DNA of 64,000 bases from Anaerolineae bacterium (GTDB lineage Bacteria > Chloroflexota > Anaerolineae > Aggregatilineales > Phototrophicaceae), in contig JAJEBK010000028.1 in the NCBI GenBank assembly GCA_022823945.1, positions 1 through 64,000 on the forward strand, in the 5' to 3' direction. Shown piece after piece: positions 10,770-14,472 of the stretch; position 1 is the first letter of the stretch, and each line of letters starts with the position of its first letter. The notes beneath the pieces were generated by a model, which was not told where the DNA came from, made no database searches, and saw nothing but the letters and a program-made list of their open reading frames with translations. A program made the translations under genes and the position numbers.

Positions 10770-10810
10770 AGCAGGATTGCCGCCACGCGCCCAAGATAGA
10801 AAGTCTCACC
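10770..10810 (+). repeat. left 41-bp direct repeat bounding an accessory island
   Basis: agcaggattgccgccacgcg... recurs in the same orientation at 12714-12754 with 5 mismatches in 41 positions. The two copies bracket the restriction endonuclease and methyltransferase genes exactly, like a target duplication or attachment site pair. Confidence 0.8.
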
Positions 10811-10954
10811 TACGAAGTAATTCCATCTGAGATTGATGCAAGTCTGAGTCTCGCGCGATTTGTAGAGTGAAAGCATAGCGTATACCATTGATACTTAGTA
10901 GCAGGCGGGTCGCACATTGACTCGTATGACATTTGCAGAATAGAGGGCAAGCTG

Positions 10955-12067
10955 TTGGGATACAGGTCGATAGACGCACTCCAAAACGACCTTGCGAACG
11001 AAATCTTTTATTATGCGAGAGACCGCAAGAAAGCGGCAGGAAGAGCATTGGGCACGCTTGTAGAAGTGGTCGCGCACTATCTTCTTTGCGCATGGGAATT
11101 TCGAAACCACCTGGTGATTGAACGCAAGCTGACCGAGTACGCAAATCCTGAAATCGCGCACAATGTCGAGTTTTCTCTTCACCCGATCGTGGGGCAACAA
11201 GAATTCAGGATTGCTTCGTCTCTTCCTGTAACGCCTGCAAAAGTTCGACGGCATTTACAAGTACTTGAGAATTATCGTCTCAAGTCAAGCCAGATCGTGA
11301 CCAGACATGGCATAAAGCGAAACTCAACAGTTCTCACGGAGACAGAAAGGGGTCCAATAGTCGCTCATGTCGATGCAATGGGCGCTGACTTTTATGATCT
11401 TACAGTTTGTGAGCTTCGCGCTGCTCCACACGCAATTTTCGAGTGCAAGCGCGTTGGCGTCGAAGAAGGTATGCGCAAGGGACCACAGACGATTGAAAAA
11501 GCCAAGCAAGGCGCATATGTGGCGAGAGCAGTATCCTCGCTGCAAAAGGTGCGGGGACGCAGCGGAGAGATTCATGGCATAATTGAGGATGCAGAAGGCA
11601 AGTTTCGCATAGCGCCGTATGAGCAACTGTTGCGCAAAGTGATCGGCGCATCGGCGCGTTCTCAGTATCCTGGCTTCATCATGACCGTCGGCGTTGTCAG
11701 CAACCATGGAAACTGGTTTACATCCGACAACTTCAACAAAGAACTGCTTGTATTGGCACAATCTTACGACTGGCTCTTGTTTATCACCGATTCGGGGTTG
11801 CATCAATTCATTGAAGATATGCTGCTTGACCCAATTGCCGAGTATTCGCCGGCTCGCGAGGCGTTCCTGGCGAGCTATTCTGGCCGAGCGGGCAAGAACA
11901 AATTCACGAAAGTAAACATGGATGTGGACGCCGACAGAGTCCTGGTGAAATACTTCGGGAAGTATCGGCGTGAAGTGGAAACATGGTTCAATGTAATTTC
12001 ACCAAGCGGCAGGTCAATTGAAGACCTGAAATCGGACTTGTATACGCTTGCGAATATGCCGAACTGA
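10955..12067 (+). CDS. putative type II restriction endonuclease (PD-(D/E)XK-like)
   Basis: A 370-residue protein I cannot assign to a named enzyme. Near residue 148 the segment YDLTVCEL is followed by AIFECKRVGVEEG, so Asp148...Glu163-x-Lys165 forms a plausible PD-(D/E)XK nuclease core. A helical basic segment (KGPQTIEKAKQGAYVARAV) follows. The adjoining methyltransferase gene overlaps its 3' end, which is typical of a restriction-modification pair and is the main support for the call. The start is TTG 10955, with AGAGGG 7 nt upstream. Base composition is visibly richer in A/T than the neighbours, and the pair lies between 41-bp direct repeats, so it was probably acquired horizontally. Confidence 0.65.
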   Translation: MGYRSIDALQNDLANEIFYYARDRKKAAGRALGTLVEVVAHYLLCAWEFRNHLVIERKLTEYANPEIAHNVEFSLHPIVGQQEFRIASSLPVTPAKVRRHLQVLENYRLKSSQIVTRHGIKRNSTVLTETERGPIVAHVDAMGADFYDLTVCELRAAPHAIFECKRVGVEEGMRKGPQTIEKAKQGAYVARAVSSLQKVRGRSGEIHGIIEDAEGKFRIAPYEQLLRKVIGASARSQYPGFIMTVGVVSNHGNWFTSDNFNKELLVLAQSYDWLLFITDSGLHQFIEDMLLDPIAEYSPAREAFLASYSGRAGKNKFTKVNMDVDADRVLVKYFGKYRREVETWFNVISPSGRSIEDLKSDLYTLANMPN

Positions 12068-12674
12068 AAGCGAAATCAAGGTGACTGCCGGAAGAAATAA
12101 TGCTGAATCGGTCAGCCAGCACTGGTGTACGCCGCCCAAGTATGTCAAGGCGATACGAGAATTTTTTGGCGGAAGGATAGAACTTGATCCTTGCTCCAAC
12201 AAGTACTCAATCGTCGATGCAGTGGTAGAGTATTCCCTGCCCGAAAATGATGGCTTGCACGCCTCCTGGGATTACCAGACTGTTTTCATCAATCCACCCT
12301 ACGGCAGAGATCGGGAGCGTGGCACAACGATCCTTGATTGGCTAAGAAAGGCTGCGATTACGCACGACAAGCACGGCGCAGAGGTAATCGCCCTGGTGCC
12401 AGTTGCGCCCAACACGCGACATTGGAAGCAATATGTCTTCGGCGTTGCAACCGCTATTGTCTTTCTATACGACACGCGTCTTAAGTTTCTTGTGAATGGA
12501 AAGGAAGGCGGCAAAGGCGCCCCGATGGCATGCGCGTTGATTTACTGGGGTTGCAAATATCAGCGATTTGAAGCAGCTTTCAGCAGATTCGGCGCAGTCT
12601 GCGACATTCGCAATCTGCAAGACATTACGATAGGCAACGGCAGGCAATTGGCCATTTGGCAGCAGCACACTTAG
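12048..12674 (+). CDS. phage-type N6-adenine DNA methyltransferase (Dam-like)
   Basis: About 200 residues with the layout of the phage N-6-adenine methyltransferase family (Pfam DNA_N_6-adenine-Mlase type): WCTPPKYVKAIREFFGG near the start, LDPCSN (46-51), the catalytic INPPYG (81-86) and a C-terminal APMACALIYWG segment. It would transfer a methyl group from SAM to adenine N6, protecting the host from the nuclease encoded just upstream. The start is uncertain: TTG 12048 overlaps the nuclease gene by 20 nt, and GTG 12081 lies just after its stop. The gene has no second target-recognition domain, as is normal for this small family. Confidence 0.8.
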   Translation: MRICRTESEIKVTAGRNNAESVSQHWCTPPKYVKAIREFFGGRIELDPCSNKYSIVDAVVEYSLPENDGLHASWDYQTVFINPPYGRDRERGTTILDWLRKAAITHDKHGAEVIALVPVAPNTRHWKQYVFGVATAIVFLYDTRLKFLVNGKEGGKGAPMACALIYWGCKYQRFEAAFSRFGAVCDIRNLQDITIGNGRQLAIWQQHT

Positions 12675-12713
12675 CGCGCTTGCGGACGGCTGACTGCATC
12701 ACAGGACTTTTCT

Positions 12714-12754
12714 AGCAGGATTGCCGTCACGCGCCCACGATAAAAGGTCTCGCC
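12714..12754 (+). repeat. right 41-bp direct repeat bounding an accessory island
   Basis: agcaggattgccgtcacgcg... matches the copy at 10770-10810 in the same orientation. Read on the minus strand, both copies can be translated as GETFYxGRVxAILL, which shows how close they are. This copy ends 8 nt before the 3' end of the M14 peptidase gene. Confidence 0.8.
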
Positions 12755-12762
12755 CAGTGGCA

Positions 12763-14472
12763 TCATGGCAGGGATAGCGAGCGTATTTGCACGCCGCCCT
12801 TTTGCGCGGAGGCTGTAACGGTCACAACCGCGCCCGGCTCTGCCCGCAACAGCCACTCGATGCGCGCGCTCGTGTCGCTCCATTGCCGCAGCCAGGGTGA
12901 CCAGGCGGCAGTGCGTTCATCGCGCCCGGCCAGGTGCCCGATGCTTTGCCGCGCCGAGCCCATCAGCAACTCGCAGCCCGCCGCTTCCAGCGCGACTTCG
13001 ACTGTGCCAGCCGTGCCATGCGCCAGGGCTCGCTGGGTTAGGTGGGTGGGCAAGAAACCTTCGTTGGCGACCAGCGCGCTCAGCTTGACCAAGTTGTCCG
13101 CCAGGCGCACGGCTTCCAACTGGCGAATGTTCAGCAGCGGAGCGGTCATGGCGTGGCGCAGCGTGAACAGGCAATTGCTGTGCAGGGTTTCGGGCAAGAA
13201 ATTGCGCGCCGCTTCTGTCGTGGCAAAGCTGCGTGGCGGCGGGTTGCGAAATGTATACATATGCGTCCAACCGCCGATCTCGACCAGGCCCAGCTGTGGA
13301 TGCTCAAAGGGCTGCCAGTCGATGAAACCAGCGCCGCCCAGATGCTCATCGTTATACGCCAGCAGCGTGATCTCGTCATCTGTAGAACGGGCGCGCACCT
13401 GGTACTTGGCTGGCTGTTCGATGCCAGCCGCCAACTCTGGATTCCACAGCTCGGTGCTGAAAGTGATGATGCCAAACTCGTCATAAGCCCACTGCATCAG
13501 CGAGCCGACGCGCGGCTGGTCGGGGTCGGTTGTGAATTCTTCGTAGACCGAGATGACCGGATAGCCAGTCAGCGCTGTGCCCATTGCGCCGATGCGATTG
13601 TATAGGGCGAGATCGGCGCGCGGCAGGCTGTCGTCCGGGGCGACCAGCGAAGGTCTCAGGTGCAAGCCGCCGTGCGTATGATAGCACTGCATGCCGGCGA
13701 TATTGGGGTGATCGAGGATGAAATCGGCGATTGCCCGCGCTTCTGGCTCGGACAAAGGCGCTTCTCCCGCGCCGTACTGTCGAAATTCGGGACGCCAGCC
13801 GGCTGGAAAATTGCGATTGAGGTTGCCGTCACGCGGCTTTTGAATCTCAAAGTTGACGCCGTTCCAGTCGCCACGGATATCGCCTTCGCGGTAGAGGCGA
13901 TAATAAGGACCTCGCCCGACCTCGCCCGCTTCTCGCAAGGTCATCAGGCGTGGATCTTCGGCAGCGACTCGCCACTCGCCAGCTGGATCGCGAATGCGCA
14001 TTTGGGTGATGAAGCCATCGCCATTCATATCCTGCTGGCACAAGCCTCGCGTCTGTTCTTCGCCGGGCAAAAAGCGTCCATTGCCACACCAATGACAGGG
14101 CGTCTTCAGGCTGATCTCTGCGCCATCGGGATTGATGCGCGGGATGATGTAAAAAGCCAGTTTGTCCAGCAGCCAGCTGACATCGGCATCAATGCCATAA
14201 TTGGTCAGCAGATACCAAATGGTATAGACAGCGGTCTGGGTAGTGGCGACTTCTTCGGCGTGGATGCCAGCGTCAATGTAAAATGCCGGCTTGTCAGTGT
14301 GCGCGCCCGTGGCGGTGTTGGTCAGCGTCATGCAATGGATGTCGCGCCCGCGCCAGCTCTGCCCGATAACTTCCAGGCTTGCCAGCGCTGGATAGGCATC
14401 CGCCAGTCCCTGCAAATGACCGCACAGCGTCTGATAGTCGAAGTATTCGCCAAAGTCGATCGTGTTTGGCAT
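12763..14472 (-). CDS. M14-family zinc carboxypeptidase with calcium-loop insertion
   Basis: A 569-residue metallopeptidase of family M14. The zinc-binding GIHAEE (His-x-x-Glu, near residue 70), IPRINPDG, RNFPAGW, the zinc His in CYHTHGG, and catalytic Glu in FSTELWNP are all visible in order. Between the second and third motifs is DMNGDGFITQM, which matches an EF-hand/dockerin-like calcium loop. The C-terminal ~150 residues form a beta-rich extension. No signal peptide is evident, so it probably acts inside the cell or leaves by another route. AGGGGA precedes the ATG. The hydantoinase-like gene lies 36 nt upstream on the same strand, suggesting co-transcription for peptide or cyclic-amide breakdown. 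Confidence 0.9.
   Translation of the reverse strand: MPNTIDFGEYFDYQTLCGHLQGLADAYPALASLEVIGQSWRGRDIHCMTLTNTATGAHTDKPAFYIDAGIHAEEVATTQTAVYTIWYLLTNYGIDADVSWLLDKLAFYIIPRINPDGAEISLKTPCHWCGNGRFLPGEEQTRGLCQQDMNGDGFITQMRIRDPAGEWRVAAEDPRLMTLREAGEVGRGPYYRLYREGDIRGDWNGVNFEIQKPRDGNLNRNFPAGWRPEFRQYGAGEAPLSEPEARAIADFILDHPNIAGMQCYHTHGGLHLRPSLVAPDDSLPRADLALYNRIGAMGTALTGYPVISVYEEFTTDPDQPRVGSLMQWAYDEFGIITFSTELWNPELAAGIEQPAKYQVRARSTDDEITLLAYNDEHLGGAGFIDWQPFEHPQLGLVEIGGWTHMYTFRNPPPRSFATTEAARNFLPETLHSNCLFTLRHAMTAPLLNIRQLEAVRLADNLVKLSALVANEGFLPTHLTQRALAHGTAGTVEVALEAAGCELLMGSARQSIGHLAGRDERTAAWSPWLRQWSDTSARIEWLLRAEPGAVVTVTASAQKGGVQIRSLSLP

What the first reader, a model, noticed from the sequence alone, without database searches (positions are those of the whole stretch)
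10770..12754. Restriction-modification island bounded by 41-bp direct repeats
Two same-orientation 41-bp sequences with 5 mismatches (agcaggattgccg...) bracket exactly a putative PD-(D/E)XK nuclease and a phage-type adenine methyltransferase, in DNA that looks more A/T-rich than its surroundings. There is no transposase or integrase between the repeats. Joining at the repeats would rebuild a continuous leader between the radical SAM gene and the end of the M14 gene. This suggests an integrase-less insertion, perhaps moved in trans or by recombination between repeats.
Basis: partly seen in the sequence, partly recalled or inferred. Interest (0 to 1): 0.65.

Follow-up and report, generated by a model that had tools for sequence, protein, structure and literature searches.

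The report
Restriction-modification pair inserted with target duplication
A two-gene DNA-cutting and DNA-marking system landed in the start of a peptidase gene, left a 41-base duplicated piece of that gene on each side, and the rest of the peptidase gene is gone; this is a clear new example of a rarely documented but already described way in which such systems move.

Summary
Two same-strand 41-bp copies (36/41 identical; 10770-10810, 12714-12754) bracket a REase gene and a Dam-type MTase gene. The repeat occurs nowhere else in the genome, and the bracketed DNA drops to about 50% GC. No simple empty site was found, but two close congeners explain the repeats: there the same place between the radical-SAM and M14 genes holds an intact M24 peptidase gene, and both repeats are its 5' coding end. 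The right copy is the in-situ M24 start, its ATG overlapping the M14 stop; the left copy duplicates the same stretch. Both share changes absent from the congeners' M24, so the duplication happened in this lineage. The rest of M24 is missing from the assembly. Best reading: an R-M unit inserted by a non-homologous, target-duplicating event into the M24 5' end or its remnant, with loss of M24. Insertion with long target duplication is published for R-M systems (reviewed in PMC3874152, PMC3031569). The R-M pair is patchily spread through the class and in viral contigs. No integrase, terminal inverted repeats or other repeat-flanked copy was found. New member of a known kind; interest moderate to low.

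The parts
10770..10810 (-). Left 41-bp repeat: duplicate of the 5' coding end of an M24 peptidase gene (codons GETFYLGRVAAILL), without a start codon; its left edge joins the radical-SAM upstream flank
10811..12713 (+). Inserted unit (1903 bp, ~50% GC): 144 bp upstream DNA, REase gene, MTase gene, 39 bp downstream DNA; no terminal inverted repeats found
10955..12067 (+). Putative PD-(D/E)XK restriction endonuclease, 370 aa, TTG start, invariant E163-C-K165
12081..12674 (+). Dam-type (PF05869) N6-adenine DNA methyltransferase, 197 aa, GTG start, NPPY motif
12714..12754 (-). Right 41-bp repeat: in-situ 5' coding end of the M24 gene (MMPLGETFYRGRVTAILL)
12755..12766 (-). Remaining start of the lost M24 gene; ATG 12764-12766 overlaps the M14 stop codon
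9859..10740 (-). Radical-SAM (PA0069/Rv2578c-like) gene, left syntenic flank
12763..14472 (-). M14 zinc carboxypeptidase gene, right syntenic flank

Best explanation
A type II-like restriction-modification unit (REase + Dam-type MTase, insert 10811-12713) entered the chromosome in this lineage by a non-homologous insertion that duplicated 41 bp of the target. The target was the 5' coding end of an M24 peptidase gene lying between the radical-SAM and M14 genes, or what was left of it; the M24 body was lost before, during or soon after the insertion. Shown: the repeats, their M24 origin, the intact M24 gene at the same place in two close relatives, its absence from this assembly, and the absence of recombinase genes in the insert. 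Inferred: insertion into a break whose two ends overlapped by about 41 bases (fill-in of a long stagger, or break-repair synthesis that copied the 41 bp twice), so that one copy came to lie on each side of the incoming DNA. Also inferred: the order of events. Open: the source (another genome or another place in this genome).
For: Same rSAM-M14 synteny in G003 (93% nt) and G030 (87-91%), breaking at window 10769/12718, with a 380-aa M24 gene (PF00557 E 4e-41) in place of the R-M. M24-M14 pairs are also adjacent in G017 and G033, so the pair is old. No M24 orthologue is left in G000 (best hit 34%). The right copy keeps the M24 start and its overlap with the M14 stop; native flank - copy - insert - copy - native flank is the topology of a target duplication. 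Both copies share AGCA where G003 and G030 have GCCT, so both descend from one sequence of this lineage. Copies differ by 12%, about the fourfold-site divergence of G000-G003 (9-15%), placing the duplication near or after that split. R-M absent from G003 and G030, present in 4 of 33 congeners (plus one remnant) at another place. R-M insertion with long, variable target duplication is described in the literature (PMC3874152, PMC3031569).
Against: No genome with the M24 5' remnant but without the R-M was found, so the exact pre-insertion site is inferred. Loss of the M24 body right at the edge of the left copy is not explained by a plain target duplication and needs a second or combined event. 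The R-M lies ~1.1 kb from the same MFS gene beside which it sits in G019/G011/G020, with the same relative orientation: a coincidence under random insertion. None of the other copies of this R-M has long flanking repeats. The genome is a 94%-complete draft.
Confidence: 0.7

Rival explanations
1. Site-specific integration in trans: the repeats are attL/attR of a recombinase encoded elsewhere (for example by a phage), and the R-M unit is a satellite cassette with a 41-bp att core matching the M24 5' end.
For: Direct repeats at both ends, no recombinase inside, relatives of the R-M in viral contigs. Some integrases use gene ends as attachment sites (general knowledge).
Against: Repeat found only at these two places; no other copy of this R-M carries matching or long flanking repeats; the target gene was not restored but lost; both copies look about equally far from the native M24, with no sign of an element-borne half.
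Confidence: 0.1
2. Recombination with foreign DNA in which an R-M unit already lay beside an orthologous M24 5' end; the left copy is donor DNA.
For: The two copies differ by 12%, with 3 of 5 differences at third codon positions, as two orthologues might.
Against: Both copies share lineage-specific changes not in the M24 genes of G003, G030, G017 or G033; in no examined genome is the R-M beside this M24 gene; 3 of 5 is not unusual by chance (about 0.2).
Confidence: 0.1
3. The R-M is old at this place (inherited beside the MFS gene), and G003/G030 lost it; the repeats are decay products of M24.
For: MFS gene close by with the same relative order and orientation as in G019, G011 and G020; R-M tree places the window copy within the genus clade.
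Against: Needs two clean losses with an intact M24 in G003 and G030; M24-M14 adjacency is old; the relative G027 keeps its R-M remnant beside the sortilin-like gene, not here, and its MTase is only 71% identical to the window's.
Confidence: 0.08

Closest known systems
R-M insertion with long target duplication (Helicobacter pylori; Nobusato et al. 2000, Furuta et al. 2010; as cited in PMC3874152, PMC3031569, PMC1643837)
   Same: An R-M unit without transposase or integrase, flanked by one long direct repeat that is single-copy in relatives lacking the unit; lower GC than the host.
   Different: Here the duplication is 41 bp (the review speaks of the order of 100 bp), the target gene has also been deleted, and the host is not Helicobacter. 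The two original papers are not in the library; the comparison rests on papers citing them.
Dam-type phage N6-adenine methyltransferases (Pfam PF05869, PHROG 111)
   Same: Window MTase scores above Pfam's cut-off and matches PHROG 111 (E 2e-30).
   Different: Here always paired with one REase family; below NCBIfam TIGR01712's equivalog cut-off (31 against 97 bits).
PfoI and BsmI (PD-(D/E)XK restriction enzymes)
   Same: Best structural matches of the predicted REase (Z 6.9 and 5.3); invariant ExK.
   Different: No sequence similarity (9% and 6% identity); the first acidic ligand is not assigned; Z is in the range where a shared arrangement may be all.
Integrative islands with attL/attR
   Same: Direct repeats at both ends of a foreign segment.
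   Different: No integrase, target gene lost, repeat not seen with other copies of the unit.

Membership tests
R-M insertion with long target duplication | R-M genes bounded by a long direct repeat | tested here: met
   41-bp repeats, 36/41
R-M insertion with long target duplication | Repeat sequence single-copy at the same place in relatives without the R-M | tested here: met
   G003 and G030: one copy, inside intact M24
Simple insertion into an otherwise unchanged site | Nothing of the ancestral site lost | tested here: not met
   M24 body missing in the window genome; this lowers 'simple insertion', not 'target duplication'
R-M insertion with long target duplication | No transposase/integrase in the unit | tested here: met
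   Only REase and MTase ORFs of note
DNA transposon | Terminal inverted repeats and short constant-length duplication | tested here: not met
   No terminal inverted repeat in the outer 60 bp; duplication 41 bp
Integrase-borne island (att sites) | Same att core at other copies or in the genome | tested here: not met
Dam (PF05869) methyltransferase | Score above curated cut-off; NPPY motif | tested here: met
   59.5 against 28.1 bits; NPPYGR
PD-(D/E)XK nuclease | Core fold with D and ExK metal ligands | tested here: inconclusive
   E163-C-K165 invariant; top structural rows PfoI, BsmI Z 5-7; first acid not assigned; Foldseek alone gave no significant match
Type II R-M system | REase cuts the site that the MTase protects | not testable with these tools
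   Genes linked in every examined locus with a full-length REase; activity needs the bench

The most novel reading that the evidence does not exclude
The R-M unit mobilises itself: its own nuclease makes or exploits breaks, so that it inserts with long target duplications and a linked deletion, without any recombinase, in groups far from Helicobacter.
Probability: 0.1. Interest if true: 0.6.

Novelty: new member of a known kind. Interest (0 to 1): 0.32.

Why it matters
How R-M systems without recombinases move is an open question; few cases have the pre-insertion gene in close relatives. Here the target (codons 4-17 of an M24 gene), the gene loss and a rough date (near the split from G003) can be read from sequence, outside Helicobacter. 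The REase family is also unrecognised by Pfam, NCBIfam and PHROGs although it is steadily paired with a Dam-type MTase in at least nine genera of the class and in viral contigs.

Tried and rejected
Long flanking repeats at 16 other loci of the same R-M family, decayed copies included: none above background. A mobile source in plasmid and phage records: no match. Conserved non-coding ends of the unit: homology between copies stops at the REase start and the MTase stop. A sequence relative of the REase with a solved structure: only chance hits. Foldseek on the REase model: nothing below E 0.05. The two copies as diverged orthologues under coding constraint: 3 of 5 differences synonymous, not significant. 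Integron attC sites around the G071 copy: pattern scan with the standard core gave none. In-frame stops reported for some rSAM orthologues lie at the gene ends in those read. A target duplication around the G027 remnant compared with G014: none seen.

Full report
Observation. Shuffled sequence never comes close, and the genome has no third copy at up to 3 mismatches. Between them GC is 49-51% against about 63% outside, and third-position GC is 0.53-0.57 against 0.71-0.76. The enclosed genes are a 370-aa protein without Pfam, NCBIfam or PHROG family and a 197-aa Dam-type adenine methyltransferase.

What the repeats are. In the congeners G003 (93% nt identity of the flanks) and G030 (87-91%) the flanking radical-SAM and M14 genes lie in the same order, but between them is an intact M24 peptidase gene on the minus strand. 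Window and relatives are collinear up to about 10769 and again from 12718. Position 12718 lies inside the right repeat. The right repeat and the bases up to 12766 are the first codons of that M24 gene (MMPLGETFYRGRVTAI..., against MMPLGEAFYRGRVAAI... in G003), and its ATG overlaps the stop codon of M14. The left repeat is the same stretch without the start codon. M24 and M14 are neighbours also in G017 and G033, so the pair is old; G000 has no M24 orthologue left, only 34% paralogues. So the repeats are not a random leader sequence, and the ancestor of this place carried a peptidase gene.

Both copies come from this lineage. At positions 1, 2 and 4 both copies agree with each other (AGCA) against G003 and G030 (GCCT). 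The left copy is preceded by CCAGC, so it reads CCAGCAGCAGGATTGCC; G030 has CCAGCAGCAGGATTCCC 36 bp further into the same gene. The simplest inference is a 36-bp in-frame deletion between two GGATT sites before the duplication, and a second deletion joining the M24 remnant to the radical-SAM flank through the shared CCAGC. This order is inferred, not shown. The two copies differ at 12% of sites, about the fourfold-site divergence of G000 from G003 (9-15%); with 41 bases the uncertainty is wide, but it fits a duplication on the G000 branch, near or after that split.

The R-M unit. Full-length REase relatives exist in four of 33 congeners (62-65% identity), and a fifth has a remnant in which the first 35 REase residues run into the MTase C-terminal part. 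In G019, G011 and G020 the pair lies beside the MFS gene; in G019 and G020 a sortilin-like gene is on the other side, and in G022 and the G027 remnant the pair also adjoins the sortilin-like gene. Several congeners have MFS and sortilin-like genes side by side without the R-M. In the class, 10 of 396 genomes in nine genera have REase matches, two of them broken; one public genome and four viral contigs, three with the same match coordinates and score, do too. An MTase of the same family follows directly in every examined locus with a full REase. GC of the pair is 46% in congeners and 50% here, so low GC is a property of the unit and does not date the insertion. In the tree the window REase falls in the genus clade on its own branch. 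The close relative G027 shares only 71% of the MTase with the window, while its MFS protein is 88% identical; so at least one of the two units is not simply inherited, though the G027 copy is decayed. The source of the window unit (another genome, or another place in the same genome) stays open.

REase fold. The model (mean pLDDT 72.5, four sequences) has no significant Foldseek match. Re-alignment of Foldseek's candidates puts PfoI first (Z 6.9, 174 residues, rmsd 4.3), then BsmI, with EndoMS and a Pyrococcus repair endonuclease lower. These are PD-(D/E)XK enzymes by established knowledge; Z under 8 is only suggestive. E163 and K165 of an ECK motif are invariant. PD-(D/E)XK is likely, not proven.

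Mechanism. The arrangement native flank - copy - insert - copy - native flank, with copies of the target and not of the insert, is that of a target duplication. There is no recombinase in the insert, no terminal inverted repeat, and no sign that the 41 bp travel with the unit: 16 other loci of this R-M family have no long flanking repeats, so the repeat belongs to the site. Insertion of R-M units with long and variable target duplications has been reported from comparisons of related genomes (PMC3874152 and PMC3031569, citing Nobusato 2000 and Furuta 2010; the Furuta paper is not held). I take this as the best explanation. How the duplication forms is not shown here: fill-in of a widely staggered break and repair synthesis copying the target twice both fit. 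The loss of the M24 body at the edge of the left copy suggests that deletion and insertion were linked, but separate events are possible.

Doubts. No genome shows the exact pre-insertion state. The unit sits 1.1 kb from the MFS gene beside which its relatives live, which may be chance or may mean that this neighbourhood receives insertions often. The genome is a 94%-complete draft. An att-site model with a recombinase in trans is not excluded but has nothing specific in its favour.

Verdict. It is a new, well-documented member of a known kind.

Noticed in passing
L054:4652-5147 (G027): R-M remnant in which a deletion joins the first ~35 REase residues to the MTase C-terminal half as an open frame of 159 aa; the sister genome G014 lacks the R-M at that place.
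   Followed up: partly
L146:4001-5736 and L160:5306-7060 (G071): A viral contig and a genome of another family carry very similar copies of this R-M pair (short branches in the tree), pointing to recent transfer; an integrase-like ORF lies ~0.6 kb downstream of the MTase in the viral contig.
   Followed up: partly
L160:7042-7110 (G071): GGCTAAC...GTTAGCC inverted pair about 60 bp apart just after the MTase, and a 12-bp copy (GGTCGTTAGCCG) just before the REase; looks cassette-like but does not fit the standard attC core.
   Followed up: partly
L117, L118 (G006, G015), between the sortilin-like and MFS genes: About 2.9 kb of other DNA between two genes that are directly adjacent in other congeners: a recurrent insertion place.
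   Followed up: no
L127:1-120 (G000:C51 start): Contig end beside the sortilin-like gene looks like an insertion-sequence fragment (by eye), so the place where congeners keep the R-M cannot be read in this genome.
   Followed up: no
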